From: Chitinophagaceae bacterium
GTDB lineage: Bacteria > Bacteroidota > Bacteroidia > Chitinophagales > Chitinophagaceae
Reading direction: 5' to 3'
Assembly: GCA_020847395.1 (NCBI GenBank)
Contig: JADLCD010000135.1
Coordinates: 1-64,000 of the forward strand
DNA: 64,000 nucleotides
In this document: in pieces, positions 26,655 to 35,465 of the stretch
Numbering within the stretch: position 1 is the stretch's first letter
How the letters are laid out: every line of letters begins with the position of its first letter
Made by a program: the position numbers and the translations under genes
Notes under the pieces: model-generated
What the model was told of the DNA's origin: nothing
Seen by the model: the letters and a program-made list of their open reading frames with translations, nothing else
The model's database searches: none

Positions 26655-26751
26655 GTTGGGGATAATTATGTTGAAGGAAGCGGTAAATAATTCTGAAAAA
26701 GTAAGTCAAAAATTTTTTTTTATCAAAAAAGCATCGAATATTTGTGCCGCA

Positions 26752-26814
26752 ATGAAAAATAATACAGTAAATAAATATTGGTGGTGGCATACAAACTCTA
26801 ACAGGGGCTTGTAA
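26752..26814 (+). CDS. trpL: trp leader peptide with three consecutive Trp codons
   Basis: A 20-codon ORF reads MKNNTVNKY, then WWW (TGG TGG TGG at 26779-26787), then HTNSNRGL and TAA. It ends 85 bases before trpE. The stop codon comes one base after GGGGCTT (26804-26810), the strand that can form the antiterminator. Three Trp codons in 20 residues, directly ahead of a trp operon and its terminator, is the hallmark of ribosome-mediated attenuation. An AATATTTG sequence at 26737-26744, close to TAnnTTTG, would start transcription at about the ATG. Confidence 0.85.
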   Translation: MKNNTVNKYWWWHTNSNRGL

Positions 26815-26873
26815 TGCTATTATTGTATTTAATTACGCTATAATATTAAGCCCCGGTTCATCCGGGGTTTTTT
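26804..26873 (+). promoter_or_regulatory. trp attenuator: competing antiterminator and terminator
   Basis: The terminator is CCCCGG-TTCAT-CCGGGG (26851-26867), extended by G-U and A-U pairs to about 9 bp and followed by six T. GGGGCTT at 26804-26810 is complementary to AAGCCCC at 26848-26854, which is the ascending side of the terminator. A ribosome stalled on the Trp codons (26779-26787) leaves GGGGCTT free to form the antiterminator; one that reaches the stop covers it and lets the terminator form. Confidence 0.85.
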
Positions 26874-26899: not shown

Positions 26900-28336
26900 A
26901 TGAAGAAAATCGCTATAAAGACAAATTGCAGGAAAATGCTTTCGGACATACATACACCCGTGGGCATATACCTGAGAGTAAGAGACCGTTTCAGAGACAC
27001 GGTTTTGCTTGAAAGCACCGACTACCATGCCGCTGAAAACAGTTACTCTTTTATTGGCATCAACGCCATTGCAGGCATGGAAATTACGGATACTTCCTCT
27101 GTTGAATTTAAACTGCCCGGGCAAAAACCTGAAAAGCTTTCCATCGCTAATCCTGCTGAAGTACCTGATATTCTCTGGAGTTTTATGCAGCGTTTTGAAG
27201 TAGCTCCTTCAAATGAAAAAATTGCGCCGATTGTGCAGGGCTTATATGGCTATACTACGTTTGATGCGGTGCAGTTTTTTGATAGTATAAAATTTAATCC
27301 ACAAAAGAAATTTGAAATTGACAAAGACGCGGATGATAAAGGCATTCCACTAATGCGATATCGTTTATACCAGTACGTTATAGCCATCAATCATTTTAAA
27401 AGTGAAATGTATATCTGCGAAAATGAAATTGAAGGTTTGCAGAGCGATATGGCTGTTATTGAATCTTTGATAAGAAGCAAGGATGTGCCGGTATTTCCTT
27501 TTAAAACCAGGGGAGAAGAAACCTCTAACATTACGGATGATGATTATATAGCGATGGTGAAAAAAGGAATACAAAGTTGTTATCGCGGCGATGTTTTCCA
27601 GATTGTATTGAGCCGCCGGTTTGAACAAAAATTTACCGGCGATGAATTTAATGTATACAGGGCTTTACGAAATATCAATCCATCACCATACTTATTTTAT
27701 TTTGATTATGGAGATTATAAACTATTAGGCTCATCACCCGAAAGCCAGTTGATTATTAAAAATGGAAAAGCGGTGGTACATCCTATTGCGGGAACTTTTA
27801 AACGTACCGGTGATGATGAAGTAGACCAGCAGGCGGCCGAAAGATTACTGAATGATGCTAAAGAAAATGCGGAACATGTGATGCTGGTTGATTTGGCAAG
27901 AAATGATTTAAGTCGTTTATGCGATGACGTTAGTGTGAAACACTATCGCCAGGTACAGTATTACTCTCATGTTATTCATTTGGTGAGTGAAGTAAATGGA
28001 AATGTAAAGGCAGGAACCAATCCTTTTTTATTGCTGGCAACTACTTTTCCTGCGGGCACATTAAGCGGTGCGCCAAAATTTAAAGCCATGCAATTGATTG
28101 ACAGTTTTGAGCCTACTGCTAGAAGTTATTATGGCGGCGCTATAGGTTTTATGGGTTTTAACGGAAGTTGTAATCATGCTATTATGATTCGCACTTTTCT
28201 CAGCAGGCATAATACGCTTATCTCGCAGGCAGGAGCGGGTGTGGTAGCTGCATCAAAACCTGAAAGTGAATTGCAGGAAGTAAATAACAAATTAAACGCA
28301 TTGAAAAAAGCGGTGGAGATGGGGGAGGAAATTTGA
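26900..28336 (+). CDS. trpE: Anthranilate synthase component I
   Basis: 478 residues. The chorismate-binding domain (about 220-470) has DVFQIVLSRRFE, LGSSPESQL, HPIAGTFKRT, EHVMLVDLARNDL and FPAGTLSGAPKFKAMQLID. An N-terminal feedback region precedes it. It makes anthranilate from chorismate with the TrpG glutaminase and is the first enzyme of the trp branch. It is controlled by the attenuator just upstream. trpG follows on the same strand after a 76-base spacer. Confidence 0.96.
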   Translation: MKKIAIKTNCRKMLSDIHTPVGIYLRVRDRFRDTVLLESTDYHAAENSYSFIGINAIAGMEITDTSSVEFKLPGQKPEKLSIANPAEVPDILWSFMQRFEVAPSNEKIAPIVQGLYGYTTFDAVQFFDSIKFNPQKKFEIDKDADDKGIPLMRYRLYQYVIAINHFKSEMYICENEIEGLQSDMAVIESLIRSKDVPVFPFKTRGEETSNITDDDYIAMVKKGIQSCYRGDVFQIVLSRRFEQKFTGDEFNVYRALRNINPSPYLFYFDYGDYKLLGSSPESQLIIKNGKAVVHPIAGTFKRTGDDEVDQQAAERLLNDAKENAEHVMLVDLARNDLSRLCDDVSVKHYRQVQYYSHVIHLVSEVNGNVKAGTNPFLLLATTFPAGTLSGAPKFKAMQLIDSFEPTARSYYGGAIGFMGFNGSCNHAIMIRTFLSRHNTLISQAGAGVVAASKPESELQEVNNKLNALKKAVEMGEEI

Positions 28337-28412: not shown

Positions 28413-28997
28413 ATGAAAATATTGGTTTTTGATAATTATGATTCTTTTACTTATAACCTGGTACATCTGGTAGAAAAGATTCTGCATCAGAAAGTGGATG
28501 TATACCGTAACGACCAGGTAAGTCTTGAAAAAGTTGGTGAGTATGATAAGATTATTCTTTCTCCTGGTCCGGGTATACCTGGAGAAGCAGGGCTATTGCT
28601 GCCTTTGATAAAAGAATATGCAGCCAAAAAATCCATACTTGGTGTTTGCCTTGGTCACCAGGCAATAGGTGAAGCATTTGGTGGCAAGCTGGTTAATTTA
28701 AGTACGGTGTATCATGGCGTGGCGTTGCCGGTGCATATTGCTACGGAAAATGGCGGTAAAAGAAGTGAACTCTTTGCGGGCTTGAATGATACGTTGGATG
28801 TTGGCCGCTATCACTCATGGGTAGTGGCAGATGATGGCTTCCCTGAAGAACTTGAAGTAACTGCAAGAGATGATAACAATTTTATTATGGCATTGCAACA
28901 TAAAAAATATGATGTACAGGGTGTGCAGTTTCACCCGGAAAGTGTGCTTACGCCGGAGGGGGAGGTGATTATGAGAAACTGGCTGGGACTGGGATGA
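28413..28997 (+). CDS. trpG: Anthranilate synthase component II (glutamine amidotransferase)
   Basis: 194 residues from the ATG at 28413 (MKILVFDNYDSFTYNLVHLV). Class I amidotransferase triad: Cys in GVCLGHQAIGEAFGG, His and Glu in VQFHPESVL. It supplies ammonia to TrpE. The last codons (LGLG, stop) are themselves made of the CTGGGA repeat that continues 120 bases past the stop, so the C-terminus has probably been shaped by repeat expansion. A homologous PabA role is possible but the position favours TrpG. Confidence 0.95.
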   Translation: MKILVFDNYDSFTYNLVHLVEKILHQKVDVYRNDQVSLEKVGEYDKIILSPGPGIPGEAGLLLPLIKEYAAKKSILGVCLGHQAIGEAFGGKLVNLSTVYHGVALPVHIATENGGKRSELFAGLNDTLDVGRYHSWVVADDGFPEELEVTARDDNNFIMALQHKKYDVQGVQFHPESVLTPEGEVIMRNWLGLG

Positions 28998-29118
28998 CTG
29001 GGATACTGGGATGACTGGGATGACTGGGATGTTGGGATGACTGGGATGATTGGGATACTGGGATGACTGGGATGACTGGGATACTGGGATGTTGGGATGA
29101 TTGGGATACTGGGATGAT
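28984..29118. repeat. Tandem array of 8-9 bp units (ACTGGGATG)
   Basis: About fifteen units of ACTGGGATG, ACTGGGAT, ATTGGGAT and TTGGGATG run from the last codons of trpG to 29118. It is a minisatellite-like array with strong strand asymmetry (C nearly absent except in CTGGG). It lies between trpG and the GxxExxY gene. The units are too short and unspaced for a CRISPR. Confidence 0.9.
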
Positions 29119-29213: not shown

Positions 29214-29609
29214 ATGCCGGAATATAAATATGGTGATATCACCGAAAAAATAATAGGAGCATGTTTAAGAATACACAATACGCTTGGCAATGGTTTCCCG
29301 GAAGTAATTTATCAAAGAGCGCTGGCGCTTGAATTAAGAGCTATTGGTCTTTCGTTTGAAAGAGAATTTGATATGGATATATACTATATGAATCAAAAAA
29401 TAGGAAGCAGAAGAGTTGATTTTTTTGTTGAAAACAAAATTAGTGTCGAGTTAAAAGCACTTCTGAAGTTAGAAGATGGCCACTTAGCACAAGCGATAAA
29501 TTATCTTGAAGTGTATAACCTTGAGATTGGTATGTTAATAAATTTTGGAGCTGTAAAATTGCAATTTCATCGGTTTACCAACAAAAAGTTTACACCGCCA
29601 TTAATTTAA
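29214..29609 (+). CDS. GxxExxY-family protein (PD-(D/E)XK nuclease-like)
   Basis: 131 residues. The naming motif is GNGFPEVIYQRAL (G..E..Y), with IGACLRIHNTLG before it and RVDFFVENKISVELKA after it, carrying the D and E-x-K of a PD-(D/E)XK-like core. The protein family is widespread in Bacteroidota, with no established function. It sits inside the trp operon between trpG and trpD, flanked on both sides by tandem repeat arrays, and looks like an inserted accessory gene. A read-through transcript would still reach trpD. Confidence 0.88.
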   Translation: MPEYKYGDITEKIIGACLRIHNTLGNGFPEVIYQRALALELRAIGLSFEREFDMDIYYMNQKIGSRRVDFFVENKISVELKALLKLEDGHLAQAINYLEVYNLEIGMLINFGAVKLQFHRFTNKKFTPPLI

Positions 29610-29624
29610 GCGACTAATCTTATG

Positions 29625-29835
29625 TCCCAAAATCTCAATTATGAAGAAAATACTGCAATATCTATATCCTAAAATCACATTAATCCCAAAATCTCAGTCA
29701 TGAAGAAGATACTACAATTCGTCTATCTCAAAATCACATTAATCCCAAAATCTCAATCATGAAGAAGATACTACAATTCGTCTATCTCAAAATCACATTA
29801 ATCTCACAATCCCAGTCATGAAGAAGATACTACAA
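29625..29835 (+). repeat. 59-bp tandem repeats duplicating the trpD start region
   Basis: ATG codons at 29641, 29700, 29759 and 29818 are exactly 59 bases apart, each followed by AAGAARATACT and preceded by CCAAAATCTCARTC-like sequence (CACAATCCCAGTC before the last). The last ATG is trpD. Each of the first three opens a 20-codon frame starting MKKILQ and ending in TGA that overlaps the next ATG as ATGA. Copies 2 and 3 are nearly identical; copy 1 is more diverged. Confidence 0.92.
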
Positions 29836-30813
29836 TACCTCTTCGAATACAAAACACTCTCGCGCCAACAAGCAAAAGAAGTGCTGGTAAATATTTCTAA
29901 AGGAATATATAATGAAAGCGAGGTTACCTCTTTTGTTACGGTATACCTTATGCGCACTATCACCATTGATGAGTTGCAGGGTTTTGCGGATGCTTTGCTG
30001 GAACTGTGTGTGCCTGTGCCTGTAGATGAATATAATGTAGTTGATATAGTAGGTACAGGCGGAGATGGCAAGAACACATTTAATATTTCCACGCTGTCTT
30101 GTTTTATTGTTGCCGGTGCGGGGCATAAAGTAGCTAAACATGGTAACTATGGCGCTACTTCTGTAAGTGGTGCTTCAAATGTAATGGAGCAGATTGGATA
30201 CAAGTTTAAATCAGGAACTGATGATTTAAAAAGAGAAATTGAAGACGCTAATATTTGTTTTTTACATGCGCCATTGTTTCATCCCGCGTTAAAAGCAGTT
30301 GGCGCAATAAGAAAAAACCTGGGTGTTCGCACCTTCTTTAATATGCTGGGGCCAATGGTAAATCCTGCTAAACCGGCTTATCAATTGGTGGGTGTATATA
30401 ATCTTGAAATGGGCAGAATATATAATTACCTGTTGCAGCAATCAGGTAAGCCTTTCACTATTATTCATGGATTGGATGGATATGATGAAATATCACTGAC
30501 CAGCGATACAAAAGTAATTACCAATGAAGGTGAGCGTATAATGACGCCTGAACAATTGGGTAAAAGAATGGTGGCGCAAAGCGATATATATGGTGGCAAT
30601 ACCACTGAAGAAGCAGCTAAATTATTTATGGCTATTTTAAAAGGAGAAGGAACATGGGCGCAAAATGCGGTGGTGTTTGCCAATGCCGCGATGGCATTAC
30701 ATTGTACCGGCGCTTATAAAAACTATAATGATGCGTATCTTGCGGCCGTAGAAAGCCTGGAGAGTGGAAAAGCATGGGGAGTGTTGAAGAAATTGCAGGG
30801 AATGCAGGGGTAA
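29818..30813 (+). CDS. trpD: Anthranilate phosphoribosyltransferase
   Basis: 331 residues. The PRPP-binding loop GTGGDGKNTFNIST starts at residue 79; KHGNYGATSVSGASNVME and NMLGPMVNPAKP follow as in TrpD, with a C-terminal helical end. It transfers phosphoribose to anthranilate. The ATG at 29818 is the fourth in an array of 59-bp repeats and overlaps the stop of the preceding mini-ORF (ATGA), so translational coupling is likely. trpC follows after a low-complexity spacer. Confidence 0.96.
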   Translation: MKKILQYLFEYKTLSRQQAKEVLVNISKGIYNESEVTSFVTVYLMRTITIDELQGFADALLELCVPVPVDEYNVVDIVGTGGDGKNTFNISTLSCFIVAGAGHKVAKHGNYGATSVSGASNVMEQIGYKFKSGTDDLKREIEDANICFLHAPLFHPALKAVGAIRKNLGVRTFFNMLGPMVNPAKPAYQLVGVYNLEMGRIYNYLLQQSGKPFTIIHGLDGYDEISLTSDTKVITNEGERIMTPEQLGKRMVAQSDIYGGNTTEEAAKLFMAILKGEGTWAQNAVVFANAAMALHCTGAYKNYNDAYLAAVESLESGKAWGVLKKLQGMQG

Positions 30814-30894: not shown

Positions 30895-31677
30895 ATGAAC
30901 ATTTTAGATACCATAATAGCGCAAAAGAAGATTGAAGTAGAAGAACGGAAGTTAAAAACTCCTGTAGCTGAATTGGAGCAGTCTGTAAACTTTAAAAGAG
31001 ATACACTTTCTCTTAAAAAGTTTTTAGCTGATGAAAATCGTACAGGTATAATAGCGGAGTTTAAAAGAAAATCGCCTTCAAAAGGATGGATAAATGCAGG
31101 CGCAGACGCCGCAGTTGTTACGAAAGCATATGCAGATAATGGCGCGTCGGGATTATCAGTATTGACTGATGAACAATTTTTTGGTGGCAGTTTCGCTGAC
31201 TTAGAAAAAGCAAGAATAAACCAGGTGCCGATACTGCGCAAAGATTTTATGATTGATGAATACCAGTTAGTAGAGGCGAAATCAATTGGCGCGGATGTGA
31301 TATTACTGATAGCCGCTAATCTTACTGTTCAGCAGGTTAAGCAATTGGCGAAGGCTGCAAAAAATCTTGGGCTGGAAGTATTGCTTGAAATTCATAATGA
31401 AGAAGAGCTTGAACATATTTGTAATGAAGTGGATATTATTGGCGTAAACAACCGCAATTTGAAAACTTTTGAAGTGAATATTCAAACATCTATTGATCTG
31501 AGTACTAAAATTCCGACTGATAAATGTAAAATTTCAGAGAGTGGCATAAGCGATGTGAATACGATACGTGAATTGAAAAAGCATGGCTTTAAAGGTTTTT
31601 TGATTGGCGAAAATTTTATGAAATCCACCGAACCACAGATTGCCTTTGCCTCATTTGTCAAGCAACTTAAAGGCTGA
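30895..31677 (+). CDS. trpC: Indole-3-glycerol-phosphate synthase
   Basis: 260 residues from the ATG at 30895; an ATG three codons upstream (30886) is equally readable. TIM-barrel motifs: IIAEFKRKSPSKGWI, LTDEQFFGGS, RKDFMIDEYQL, VLLEIHNEEEL, GVNNRNLKTFEV and SGISDV. It closes the ring to indole-3-glycerol phosphate. Unfused to trpF, which starts 5 bases after its stop. Confidence 0.96.
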   Translation: MNILDTIIAQKKIEVEERKLKTPVAELEQSVNFKRDTLSLKKFLADENRTGIIAEFKRKSPSKGWINAGADAAVVTKAYADNGASGLSVLTDEQFFGGSFADLEKARINQVPILRKDFMIDEYQLVEAKSIGADVILLIAANLTVQQVKQLAKAAKNLGLEVLLEIHNEEELEHICNEVDIIGVNNRNLKTFEVNIQTSIDLSTKIPTDKCKISESGISDVNTIRELKKHGFKGFLIGENFMKSTEPQIAFASFVKQLKG

Positions 31678-31682
31678 ACAAC

Positions 31683-32315
31683 ATGAGAATAAAAGTTTGC
31701 GGAAATACACAACTTGAACAGGTTTATGCACTGGATGAGATGGGCGTGGAGTTTGCCGGGTTTATATTTTATCACAAATCGCCAAGATATGTGGTAGATA
31801 AAATTAATCCTGGGCAATTAAAAAAAGCAAAGCTGAATATTAATAAAGTGGGCGTATTTGTAAATGAAGACTATGATGAATTGATGAATCAAGTTGATCA
31901 ATACGGTCTGCACATGGTTCAGTTACACGGCAATGAATCACCAAAGTTTTGTGAAAGGGTAAGCCTGCAGGTGCCAACCATAAAAGTATTCAGGATTAAA
32001 GAAGGAGATAATATTGAGTGGAAGATAAGGGAATACGGAAATGTAAGTGATTTGTATTTGTTTGATACGGATTGGTCAACCTACGGTGGCAGCGGAAAAA
32101 AATTTGACTGGAAAATTTTAGAGCAGGCAGAGATAAATAAACCTTTTTTACTGAGCGGAGGAATAAGCGTTGATGATGTGAAAGATGTAAAAGCATTTGC
32201 GGCAGGTAATCACAGCGCTGAAATTTTTGCTATTGATATTAACAGCAAATTTGAAACAAGGCCCGGAGTGAAGAATATGGAAATGATAAAAACTTTTGCA
32301 GATGCTTTAAAATAA
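31683..32315 (+). CDS. trpF: Phosphoribosylanthranilate isomerase
   Basis: 210 residues. KVCGNT-type start (MRIKVCGNTQLEQV) with the catalytic Cys, AGFIFYHKSPRYV, VGVFVN, VQLHGNES, FDTDW with the catalytic Asp, and LSGGIS near the end. It isomerises phosphoribosylanthranilate. Tightly packed between trpC and the GNAT gene, so clearly in the operon. Confidence 0.95.
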   Translation: MRIKVCGNTQLEQVYALDEMGVEFAGFIFYHKSPRYVVDKINPGQLKKAKLNINKVGVFVNEDYDELMNQVDQYGLHMVQLHGNESPKFCERVSLQVPTIKVFRIKEGDNIEWKIREYGNVSDLYLFDTDWSTYGGSGKKFDWKILEQAEINKPFLLSGGISVDDVKDVKAFAAGNHSAEIFAIDINSKFETRPGVKNMEMIKTFADALK

Positions 32316-32317
32316 TT

Positions 32318-32809
32318 ATGGTACAGGTAAGACTTGCAACATATAATGATTTACCGGCGATACTGAACATATACAACTATGCCATTTTGCATACCACTGC
32401 TGTATATGATTATGTGCCACATACACTTGAAATGCGCCGGCAATGGTTTGATACAAAAATGCAGCAAGGTTTTCCTGTATTTGTTGCAGAAGATAATAAT
32501 GAGGTTGTTGGGTTTAGTGCTATAGGCCCGTTCAGAGCGTGGGCAGCATATAAGCACACTGTTGAAAACGCGATATATGTGCGGGCTGACCAGCAGGGCA
32601 AAGGCATTGGTAAACTTTTAATGCAGCCCTTGATTGATGCATCGAGGGAACTGGGTATGCATACCATTGTATCAGGCATTGATGCAAATAATGAGATTAG
32701 TTTAAAAATGCATAAACGTTTTGGTTTTGAAGAAGTGGCGTATTTTAAACAGGTAGGGTGGAAGTTTGATAAATGGCTTGATCTGAAGTTTATGCAGTTG
32801 ATATTATAG
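32318..32809 (+). CDS. GNAT-family N-acetyltransferase (phosphinothricin acetyltransferase-like)
   Basis: 163 residues. MVQVRLATYNDLPAILNIYN and the TTAVYDYVP segment resemble the phosphinothricin/methionine sulfoximine acetyltransferase subgroup; the acetyl-CoA loop is ADQQGKGIGKLL. It follows trpF by two bases, hence co-transcribed with the trp operon, although no tryptophan-related role is known to me. Substrate cannot be read from the sequence; related enzymes acetylate amino-acid analogues. Confidence 0.88.
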   Translation: MVQVRLATYNDLPAILNIYNYAILHTTAVYDYVPHTLEMRRQWFDTKMQQGFPVFVAEDNNEVVGFSAIGPFRAWAAYKHTVENAIYVRADQQGKGIGKLLMQPLIDASRELGMHTIVSGIDANNEISLKMHKRFGFEEVAYFKQVGWKFDKWLDLKFMQLIL

Positions 32810-33183: not shown

Positions 33184-34422
33184 ATGATTAACCGAACAAC
33201 AATATTAGGACAATACAAGGGCACGTTTCAACAGCCGGATATATTCGGGTATTACGGGCATTTTGGCGGAGCATATATCCCTGAAATGCTGCAGCCGAAT
33301 GTAGAGGAATTGAAGGAACAGTATTTGAAAATCATATATAATGAAGGTTTTCAAAAAGAATTCAGGGATTTGCTGAGAGATTATGTCGGCCGCCCGTCAC
33401 CGTTATATCATGCAAAACGGTTGAGTGAAAAACATAACAGCACTATATTTCTAAAGCGTGAAGATCTGAATCATACCGGTGCGCATAAAATCAATAATAC
33501 TATCGGGCAGATTTTATTGGCAAGACGTTTGGGTAAACATCGCATTATTGCGGAAACCGGCGCGGGGCAGCACGGCGTTGCTACTGCAACGGTTTGTGCG
33601 TTGATGAATATGCAATGTGTGGTATATATGGGTGAGAAAGATATTGAGCGGCAGGCGCCGAATGTTGCGAGGATGAAAATGCTTGGCGCTACTGTTGTGC
33701 CTGCAACAAGCGGAAGCAAAACGTTGAAGGATGCCACGAATGAAGCGATACGTGACTGGATCAATAATCCTGTTGATACGCATTATATAATCGGCAGTGT
33801 GGTTGGCCCGCATCCTTATCCCGATATGGTGGCGAGGTTTCAAAGTATTATCAGCGAGGAAATACGCTGGCAGTTGAAAGAAAAAACAGGCAGTGAATTA
33901 CCCGATTATGTTGTTGCCTGTGTAGGTGGTGGCAGTAATGCGGCAGGTACGTTTTATCATTTCCTGGAAGAATTATCTGTGAAACTTGTTGCGGTAGAAG
34001 CTGCCGGTCACGGCGTGAAAAGTGGTATGAGTGCAGCTACAACACAATTAGGTAAACCCGGCGTATTGCATGGAAGTAAAAGCTTAGTAATGCAAACTGA
34101 AGATGGACAGGTAGTGGAGCCGCATAGTATTTCCGCCGGACTGGATTACCCGGGTATAGGGCCGATGCATGCGCATTTGTTTGAAACCGGTCGTGGTATA
34201 TTTTTAAGTGCTACTGATAAAGAAGCGTTGGATGCGGCTTTTGAGCTGACCAGGCTTGAAGGTATTATTCCTGCTCTGGAAAGTGCACATGCTATTGCGG
34301 GACTGAATCAACTCAAACTAACGCCAAAGGATATCGTAGTAATCTGTTTGAGCGGAAGAGGCGATAAAGATATGGCAACGTATATGAAGGCAATGGAAGA
34401 AGGGGAGAATGTGGGAATGTGA
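33184..34422 (+). CDS. trpB: Tryptophan synthase beta subunit
   Basis: 412 residues. [13 protein letters not shown] near the start, PLP lysine K102 in [21 protein letters not shown], the phosphate loop [12 protein letters not shown], and SGRGDKDM at the end. Matches TrpB1. It condenses indole with serine. trpA follows after 272 bases of spacer. Upstream is a transposase remnant, so expression depends on read-through or a local promoter. Confidence 0.97.
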
Positions 34423-34694
34423 AAATTAATTTGAAAATGAGGTAATTTGAAAATTTGAAAATGTTAGCCCGGCTATATTCAATAGCTGATGTGGAAGATA
34501 TGAAGTTTGGCATTGTGCTGCAGTACCGTCTCTCTCTGCAAGGAGAGCGAGAAGGAGGGTGAGGCTTGATGGTAGAACAAAACGTTTGGCTTTATCCTAT
34601 AGCACTGCTCCTTCACCATTGTATGGAGAGAAGGAAGAAGTGTCAATCTCAAATCAAAAATCTCAAATCAAAAATCTCAAATCAGAAATCAAAA
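34423..34694. repeat. trpB-trpA spacer made of low-complexity repeats
   Basis: Holds TTTGAAAATTTGAAAATG words just after trpB, a CTCTCTGCAAGGAGAG palindrome near 34530-34550, and ATCTCAAATCAAAA repeated three times just before trpA. No gene. The last part is G-poor and unstructured, as often found at Bacteroidota translation starts. Confidence 0.6.
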
Positions 34695-35465
34695 ATGAGT
34701 AGAATACAACAACTATTTAAGCAAAAGCAAAAGAATGTTTTGAACATCTACTGTACTGCGGGTTACCCAACATTAAACAGTACAATAGAAGTGATGGAAG
34801 CATTGCAGGCTAATGGCGTTGATTTGATAGAACTGGGTATACCTTACAGCGATCCTTTGGCGGATGGACCGGTAATACAGGAAAGCGGCGGTGTTGCTTT
34901 ACATAATGGAATGACCATTAAAGTATTGATCAGCCAGTTGCAGCAGATGCGCAAAACGGTCAACGTGCCTGTAATATTAATGGGCTATGCGAATCCTGTT
35001 TTGCAATACGGCTTTGAAAAATTTTGTAAAGATGTTGCTGCCGCCGGGGTGGATGGGTTGATTCTTCCTGATGTGCCGATGCGGGAATTTGAAACAGAAT
35101 ACGGAATCATTGTAAAAAAGTATGGGTTGGATTTTATTTTCCTGGTTACGCCGGAAACTTCTGAGGAACGTATCAGGAAGATTGATGCATTGAGCACCGG
35201 GTTTATTTATGCCGTTTCATCTTCTTCTACCACCGGTAAAGACAAAGATTTTTCTGACGTGGAAGTATACCTGAAGCGGTTAAAAGCAATGAACCTGAAA
35301 AATCCGGTATTGGTTGGATTTGGTATAAAAGATAAATCCACTTTTCAGTCGGCTTGCAATTACGCCAATGGCGCTATTATAGGCAGCGCCTATATAAAAG
35401 CCTTGCAGCAGCATGCTGATATAAAACAAGCGACTAAAAATTTTTTGGAGGGAGTATTGCAATAA
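34695..35465 (+). CDS. trpA: Tryptophan synthase alpha subunit
   Basis: 256 residues from the ATG at 34695; the longer upstream frame is translated spacer repeat. Catalytic E46 in DLIELGIPYSDPLADGP, where the second catalytic Asp also lies; GYANPVLQYG, LPDVPMREFE, and the phosphate-binding GFGIKDKS and GAIIGSAYIK. It cleaves indole-3-glycerol phosphate and channels indole to TrpB. It is the last trp gene; a tRNA on the opposite strand follows after three bases. Confidence 0.96.
   Translation: MSRIQQLFKQKQKNVLNIYCTAGYPTLNSTIEVMEALQANGVDLIELGIPYSDPLADGPVIQESGGVALHNGMTIKVLISQLQQMRKTVNVPVILMGYANPVLQYGFEKFCKDVAAAGVDGLILPDVPMREFETEYGIIVKKYGLDFIFLVTPETSEERIRKIDALSTGFIYAVSSSSTTGKDKDFSDVEVYLKRLKAMNLKNPVLVGFGIKDKSTFQSACNYANGAIIGSAYIKALQQHADIKQATKNFLEGVLQ

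What the first reader, a model, noticed from the sequence alone, without database searches (positions are those of the whole stretch)
26752..26873. Ribosome-mediated trp attenuator with a WWW leader peptide in a Bacteroidota genome
Seen: a 20-codon ORF with three adjacent TGG codons, its stop one base after GGGGCTT, which can pair with AAGCCCC. That same AAGCCCC is the rising arm of a perfect terminator ending in six T, 27 bases before trpE. Known: Trp-codon leader peptides with competing hairpins control trp operons by stalling in Proteobacteria and Actinobacteria; comparative work has proposed similar attenuators in some Bacteroidota. Inference: this is a compact two-state attenuator lacking a separate pause hairpin, and the leader may be translated from a leaderless mRNA because the likely -7 element ends seven bases before the ATG.
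Basis: partly seen in the sequence, partly recalled or inferred. Interest (0 to 1): 0.8.

Follow-up and report, generated by a model that had tools for sequence, protein, structure and literature searches.

The report
Tryptophan-codon leader controlling trp operon
Just before its tryptophan-making genes this bacterium has a tiny reading frame with three tryptophan codons and a switchable stop signal, which most likely lets a stalled ribosome turn the genes on when tryptophan is scarce; this kind of switch is already known in the phylum, but this branch of it falls under the cut-off of the standard RNA library and probably starts translating at the very tip of the message.

Summary
Window 26752-26814 encodes MKNNTVNKYWWWHTNSNRGL*, followed by a terminator (26848-26870, T run to 26873) and trpE at 26900. 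All 91 usable trpE loci of genus and family have a Trp-codon leader (84 by script, 5 of these corrected by hand; 7 placed by hand). Of 89 upstreams 76 hold a WWW ORF, 0.02 expected.

The Trp codons pair with RNA beyond the stop codon in the predicted folds of 61 of 62 leaders, so all four segments of a classical attenuator are there.

It is a known kind. Rfam RF01692 "Bacteroid-trp" aligns end to end but at 33.9 bits, below its cut-off of 49; 0 of 10 family loci tested pass. This is a divergent branch of a described element.

What adds something: a promoter box ends 4-10 nt before the leader start codon (56 of 61; 1.9 expected), predicting a 0-6 nt 5' UTR, i.e. a leaderless or nearly leaderless leader peptide; and lineages in which both antiterminator arms changed. 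Response to tryptophan and the 5' end are untested.

The parts
26737..26744 (+). -7 promoter box AATATTTG (consensus TAnnTTTG, 5 of 6); predicted transcription start about 26749
   Evidence: letters; position rule -12 to -5 from a passage of PMC9723704; a box of at least 5 of 6 with exact TTTG ends 4-10 nt before the leader start in 56 of 61 dereplicated leaders, 1.9 expected. The window itself has no TTTG 15-23 nt before the box; 44 of 55 leaders do.
26752..26814 (+). leader peptide ORF MKNNTVNKYWWWHTNSNRGL*, Trp codons 26779-26787
   Evidence: conserved in relatives
26762..26841 (+). segment 1:2 hairpin; strand 26781-26794 (with the Trp codons) pairs with 26809-26812 and 26814-26823; the antiterminator strand lies in its apical part
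   Evidence: predicted folds, (7 of 9 Trp-codon bases paired beyond the stop)
26804..26810 (+). antiterminator 5' strand GGGGCTT (part of segment 2), inside the last codons
   Evidence: pairs with 26848-26854 when RNA before 26794 is taken as hidden and transcription stops at 26856
26848..26856 (+). segment 3: terminator left arm AAGCCCCGG, also 3' strand of the antiterminator
26862..26873 (+). segment 4: terminator right arm and six T
   Evidence: terminator pairs covary in alignment A1
26900..28336 (+). trpE, first gene of the controlled operon
   Evidence: Pfam PF04715 and PF00425
28413..35465 (+). rest of the operon: trpG 28413-28997, trpD 29818-30813, trpC 30895-31677, trpF 31683-32315, trpB 33184-34422, trpA 34692-35465
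   Evidence: Pfam matches; gene names assigned by me from these; that they are one transcript is inferred

Best explanation
It is a ribosome-mediated transcription attenuator of the trp operon, a divergent Chitinophagaceae branch of the element called Bacteroid-trp. Transcription starts about 0-6 nt before the leader ATG, so ribosomes begin on a leaderless or nearly leaderless RNA (inferred). With enough charged tRNA-Trp the ribosome reads through WWW to the stop codon and covers segment 2 (GGGGCTT and the stop), and segments 3:4 form the terminator. When tRNA-Trp is uncharged the ribosome stalls on WWW and hides segment 1, and segment 2 pairs with segment 3 before segment 4 is made, so polymerase reads on into trpE. 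Without translation the 1:2 hairpin holds segment 2 and the terminator forms. Shown here: the parts, their conservation, and the predicted alternative folds. Inferred: translation, stalling, response to tryptophan, the exact 5' end.
For: Parts present. Trp-codon leader in 91 of 91 usable trpE loci of genus and family; 76 of 89 upstreams hold an ATG ORF with WWW, 0.02 expected. Fold states of the window: RNA before 26794 hidden and transcription at 26856 gives an 8-pair antiterminator; RNA before 26826 hidden leaves only the terminator; nothing hidden gives 1:2 plus terminator (the hidden lengths are my assumption for a ribosome). 1:2 pairing of Trp codons in 61 of 62 dereplicated leaders; against shuffles of the post-stop segment mean z -2.5. 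Antiterminator arms fit their own partner better than arms of other loci: better than the mean swap in 43 of 62, mean -12.5 against -11.3 kcal/mol. A helix of 7 or more standard pairs in 51 of 62, of which at least 4 are not the expected arm. Changes in both arms: GAGG:CCTC (L039, L050, L054), AGGGT:ACCCT (L064), and a different arm, TGTGTCG:CGACACA or similar (L043, L052, L057, L070). Own genome has no match to TrpR, TRAP or T-box at E 0.001. Full-length alignment to RF01692.
Against: No experiment. The swap test is not corrected for kinship, and 19 of 62 do no better than the average swap. RNAalifold on 52 sequences recovers the terminator and a 3-pair stem, not the 1:2 hairpin; 10 of 62 leaders have z above -1 in the 1:2 test. 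With the terminator complete, the terminator beats the antiterminator, so antitermination must be kinetic. In one search the best helix of L025, L030, L051, L061 and L082 is not the expected arm, L088 and L089 are doubtful, and that call had no shuffle control. RF01692 and RF00513 scores are below their cut-offs.
Confidence: 0.92

Rival explanations
1. A two-state attenuator: no 1:2 hairpin; the default state is antitermination until a ribosome finishes the leader.
For: The two competing arms alone could suffice; RNAalifold does not recover 1:2 on the alignment.
Against: MFE folds pair the Trp codons with post-stop RNA in 61 of 62 leaders, stronger than shuffles of that segment (mean z -2.5; 52 of 62 below -1).
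Confidence: 0.06
2. A translation-independent switch (T-box, riboswitch or an RNA-binding protein such as TRAP) acts on the terminator and the small ORF is incidental.
For: Terminators upstream of trpE are controlled so in other phyla (recalled).
Against: At gathering cut-offs the window has only a tRNA; no match to T-box, TRAP or TrpR in the own genome; Trp codons conserved far beyond chance.
Confidence: 0.02
3. The terminator is the plain end of an upstream transcript and the leader ORF is chance.
For: None found beyond the strong terminator itself.
Against: The ORF upstream is divergent; 0 of 5000 shuffles give a WWW ORF; leader conserved in family and class.
Confidence: 0.005

Closest known systems
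Bacteroid-trp RNA, Rfam RF01692 (Weinberg et al. 2010, PMC2864571; passages seen, of which one table row names it)
   Same: Upstream of trp genes in Bacteroidota, AUG and A-rich start, UGG UGG UG. in the consensus, long hairpin over the Trp codons, left terminator arm at its end; full-length alignment to 26732-26857. My model R1 in turn matches loci that pass RF01692: L121 E 9.7e-5, L109 E 2.5e-4, L116 E 0.015 (RF01692).
   Different: 33.9 bits against a cut-off of 49. 0 of 10 family loci tested pass (nine plus L106); 0 of 7 family genomes, of which two (G045, G092) had no TrpE match. Terminator letters differ (AAGCCCC here, AAGGCUUGUC in the model consensus).
trp leader of enterobacteria, Rfam RF00513 Trp_leader
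   Same: Four-segment logic: Trp codons in segment 1, stop codon near segment 2, terminator 3:4 (recalled for E. coli); full-length alignment.
   Different: 25.1 bits, cut-off 41. Two adjacent Trp codons in E. coli (recalled), three here; no TrpR match; much shorter predicted 5' UTR.
Sinorhizobium meliloti trpL (PMC7298713, passages seen)
   Same: Leaderless leader peptide: the RNA 5' end starts with the ATG of trpL; control by attenuation without transcriptional repression.
   Different: Other phylum, other peptide; 5' end known there, only predicted here.
Leader peptides upstream of amino-acid operons in Flavobacterium psychrophilum (PMC9723704 and PMC6414381, passages seen)
   Same: Same phylum; leader-peptide attenuation proposed, Bacteroid-trp noted upstream of trp.
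   Different: Another order (recalled taxonomy). I did not look at the F. psychrophilum locus itself. In the unnamed family f25 of my class sample, which I take to be Flavobacteriaceae, 5 of 9 leaders have the box 16-18 nt before the ATG and 4 of 9 have it 5-7 nt before; in the window it is 7.

Membership tests
Rfam RF01692 Bacteroid-trp | Covariance-model score at or above the gathering cut-off (49 bits) | tested here: not met
   33.9 bits, full length 1-131
Rfam RF01692 Bacteroid-trp | Short Trp-codon ORF upstream of trp genes in Bacteroidota | tested here: met
Rfam RF01692 Bacteroid-trp | Hairpin over the Trp codons | tested here: met
   predicted folds only; not recovered by RNAalifold
Rfam RF01692 Bacteroid-trp | Homology with members above the cut-off | tested here: met
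   R1 matches L121, L109 and, weakly (E 0.015), L116; these pass RF01692
Ribosome-mediated trp attenuator (mechanistic class) | Leader peptide rich in the regulated amino acid | tested here: met
   WWW
Ribosome-mediated trp attenuator (mechanistic class) | Intrinsic terminator before the first structural gene | tested here: met
   5 of its 8 consensus pairs show changes on both sides
Ribosome-mediated trp attenuator (mechanistic class) | Antiterminator exclusive with the terminator | tested here: met
   predicted only
Ribosome-mediated trp attenuator (mechanistic class) | Read-through depends on tRNA-Trp charging | not testable with these tools
   needs experiment
Rfam RF00513 Trp_leader | Score at or above its cut-off (41 bits) | tested here: not met
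   25.1 bits
Leaderless mRNA | Mapped 5' end at or within a few nt of the start codon | not testable with these tools
   only predicted from the -7 box

The most novel reading that the evidence does not exclude
In much of the class Bacteroidia the trp leader peptide is translated from a leaderless or nearly leaderless RNA. The -7 box is held close to the leader ATG (4-10 nt in 56 of 61 family leaders, 1.9 expected; 12 of 20 class loci, 0.56 expected), although such short 5' UTRs are rare in the phylum (5.5% leaderless in F. psychrophilum, about 3.7% under 10 nt in B. thetaiotaomicron) and the his leader of the same genus keeps a longer one (box 18-23 nt before the ATG in 12 of 12). Starting at the very 5' end would put a ribosome on the leader as soon as it emerges, in a phylum that initiates without Shine-Dalgarno pairing.
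Probability: 0.55. Interest if true: 0.5.

Novelty: new member of a known kind. Interest (0 to 1): 0.32.

Why it matters
It extends a known regulatory element to a family in which the tested loci fall under the library's cut-off, gives an alignment and model for it, and points to nearly leaderless initiation as a conserved design feature of trp leaders in a phylum without Shine-Dalgarno initiation. As a kind of system it is not new.

Tried and rejected
Two-state model without a 1:2 hairpin: disfavoured. T-box, TRAP, TrpR: no match in the own genome. Other sub-threshold Rfam hits at the locus (rimP, STnc180, FasX and others) are taken as chance matches to a GC-rich hairpin with a T run; some have lower E-values than RF01692. 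RNAalifold on A1 did not recover the 1:2 stem. A covariation count with a hand-written structure was not run; arms were compared with swapped arms instead, where the 5' segment of L009 was cut short by my script because its peptide holds a later W. Matches of R1 outside the family in the order (30 of 213 genomes at E 0.01, 1 of 213 at E 1e-4) were not inspected. In one search the his leader start of L098 was taken at a wrong ATG; one search corrects this and adds L102 and L105. In one search the class box search took the shortest gap over in-frame ATGs, which leans to short gaps; one search gives a shuffle control (0.56 of 20 expected).

Rows dropped: L002 (a second chorismate-binding gene, not taken as trpE) and L087 (no upstream sequence) before all leader counts; L014 and L015 also, as duplicates of L003 and L009. 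The 91 leaders contain these two duplicates; the 62 are dereplicated at 80% identity. One search used 52 of the 62 (left out as outliers or special types: L039, L057, L073, L076, L078, L082, L085, L088, L089, L093). In L003 and L014 the script first chose a wrong ORF, and in L022, L056 and L062 a start upstream of the GTG that I prefer; all five were set by hand. Of the 84 W-run leaders, 8 have no terminator by the script; by eye they show a hairpin with a longer or imperfect loop.

Full report
What is there. Window 26752-26814 is a 20-codon ORF, MKNNTVNKYWWWHTNSNRGL, with three TGG codons at 26779-26787. A nine-pair terminator is followed by six T ending at 26873, and trpE starts at 26900. 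The genes that follow carry the Pfam domains of trpE, G, D, C, F, B and A, with a PD-(D/E)XK ORF and a GNAT ORF between them. The ORF upstream is divergent, so the terminator belongs to the trp transcript.

Chance. In 89 family and genus upstream regions, 76 hold an ATG ORF of 8-40 codons with WWW and 81 with WW; shuffles expect 0.02 and 1.36. By the looser route all 91 usable trpE loci have a Trp-codon leader: 84 found by script with at least WW (five of them then set by hand), six with a single Trp codon and one with WRW, these seven placed by hand.

Distribution. A covariance model of the element (R1, from 52 sequences) matches 67 of 85 genomes of the own family at E 0.01 (61 of 85 at E 1e-4) and 30 of 213 other genomes of the order at E 0.01 (1 of 213 at E 1e-4). 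Relatives of the sequences used for the model match it by construction. 67 misses some: G031, without a match, has trpE with a WWW leader (L106). Further out, 16 of 20 trpE loci of other orders of the class have a WWW leader and 19 of 20 a WW leader (0.00 and 0.11 expected); the twentieth, L112, reads WLW by eye; 2 of 2 of another family of the order; 9 (WWW) and 10 (WW) of 17 in other classes of the phylum (0.005 and 0.14 expected). These loci, with L106, are 40 that I chose from the 139 hits to spread over families. The own family is taken to be Chitinophagaceae from record titles.

Structure. The predicted fold of the window leader is 5.4 sd better than shuffles. It has two parts: a long hairpin, 26762-26841, in which the Trp codons pair with RNA beyond the stop codon, and the terminator. 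In 61 of 62 dereplicated leaders at least half of the Trp-codon bases pair beyond the stop; against shuffles of the post-stop segment the mean z is -2.5, 52 of 62 are below -1 and 1 is above 0. RNAalifold on 52 aligned leaders does not recover it. With RNA before 26794 hidden, as I assume for a ribosome stalled on WWW, and transcription at 26856, GGGGCUUG pairs with UAAGCCCC in eight pairs, one of them G-U; with RNA before 26826 hidden, as for a ribosome at the stop, only the terminator forms; with no ribosome, 1:2 and terminator both form. Once the terminator's right arm is included, the terminator wins even with the stalled ribosome, so antitermination has to be kinetic, as in other attenuators (recalled).

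Co-variation. Terminator: 8 of the 11 consensus pairs belong to it, 5 of the 8 with changes on both sides. Antiterminator: own partner -12.5 kcal/mol on average, swapped partner -11.3; own better than the mean swap in 43 of 62 (5' arm fixed) and 45 of 62 (3' arm fixed); not corrected for kinship. Helices of at least 7 standard pairs in 51 of 62 and at least 6 in 58 of 62, without a shuffle control; in L025, L030, L051, L061 (among the 51) and L082 the best helix is not the expected arm, and L088 and L089 are doubtful. Linked changes of both arms are seen in L039, L050 and L054 (GAGG with CCTC; L039 and L054 may be one event), L064 (AGGGT with ACCCT), and a set with a different arm (L043, L052, L057, L070: TGTGTCG or similar with CGACACA or similar). 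In L022, L056 and L062 the start is best read as GTG; for L022 and L062 this puts it 4 nt behind the box, for L056 no good box was found.

Start of the RNA. A TAnnTTTG-like box ends 4-10 nt before the leader start codon in 83 of 91 leaders by looser scoring; 5 have it 13-19 nt away and 3 have none, two of these for lack of upstream sequence. With exact TTTG and at least 5 of 6 it is 56 of 61 dereplicated leaders against 1.9 expected. A TTTG lies 15-23 nt further upstream in 44 of 55, mostly at 19-20, against 4.2 expected; the window itself lacks it. In F. psychrophilum the sigma-A box occupies -12 to -5 (PMC9723704, passages seen), so the predicted 5' UTR is the box gap minus 4, that is 0-6 nt, and 3 nt in the window with the start near 26749. 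Such UTRs are rare in the phylum: 5.5% leaderless in F. psychrophilum, about 3.7% under 10 nt in B. thetaiotaomicron (PMC7366714, passages seen). In the class sample the gap is 4-10 in 12 of 20 (0.56 expected), 16-18 in 5 of 20, and no box was found in 3 of 20. The his leaders of the same genus have gaps of 18-23 in 12 of 12, so the short gap is not a general feature of leader peptides.

What is known. Rfam RF01692 Bacteroid-trp, 'Bacteroidete tryptophan peptide leader RNA', aligns over its whole length at 33.9 bits, under its cut-off of 49. It was listed in 2010 as a cis-regulatory RNA candidate of Bacteroidetes (PMC2864571, table row seen). A 2019 paper compares it with the E. coli trp leader and says it is conserved upstream of trp in F. 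psychrophilum (PMC6414381, passage seen), and the 2021 transcriptome paper reports strong clues for leader-peptide attenuation upstream of amino-acid operons. At the cut-off it is found in 10 of 295 genomes of the class and in 0 of 7 of the own family, two of which had no TrpE match; that search used strict filters. By the Rfam cut-off the window is not a member; by position, leader, folds and reciprocal matches it is a divergent relative. A leaderless trp leader is known from S. meliloti. I saw no paper on short 5' UTRs of Bacteroidota trp leaders in the listings of searches, which cover only the held open library.

Verdict. Real, well supported, and of a known kind: a trp attenuator of the Bacteroid-trp type with the classical four segments. 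The part worth following is the nearly leaderless start.

Noticed in passing
L105 (own genome, G000:C64, upstream of hisG) and L094-L104: A second attenuator-like leader: a short ORF with four to six His codons in a row (own genome MIYTIHHHHHFLPKG) upstream of hisG in 12 of 12 genus genomes, with a terminator-like inverted repeat and T run after it by eye.
   Followed up: partly
window 28987-29117 and 29625-29836: Tandem repeats inside the trp operon: a 9-base unit GACTGGGAT about 15 times, and a 59-base unit 3.6 times, on either side of the PD-(D/E)XK ORF.
   Followed up: no
window 29214-29609 and 32318-32809: Extra genes inside the operon: a PDDEXK_3 ORF between trpG and trpD, and a GNAT acetyltransferase between trpF and trpB.
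   Followed up: no
L073, L075, L076, L078, L079, L082: Six family loci whose leader has only one Trp codon (NNGWH or NTGWH) but keeps GGGG at the end of the ORF and the CCCC/GGGG terminator.
   Followed up: partly
L085, L088, L090-L093, L106: Leaders, several from Chitinophaga records, with a different terminator (AAGGCTCGCTG or AAGGCCCGCTG ... CAGCGGGCCTT) and a different segment around the stop.
   Followed up: partly
L129-L145: WWW leader ORFs upstream of trpE also occur in other classes of the phylum (9 of 17 sampled), so the leader may be older than the class or have arisen repeatedly.
   Followed up: no
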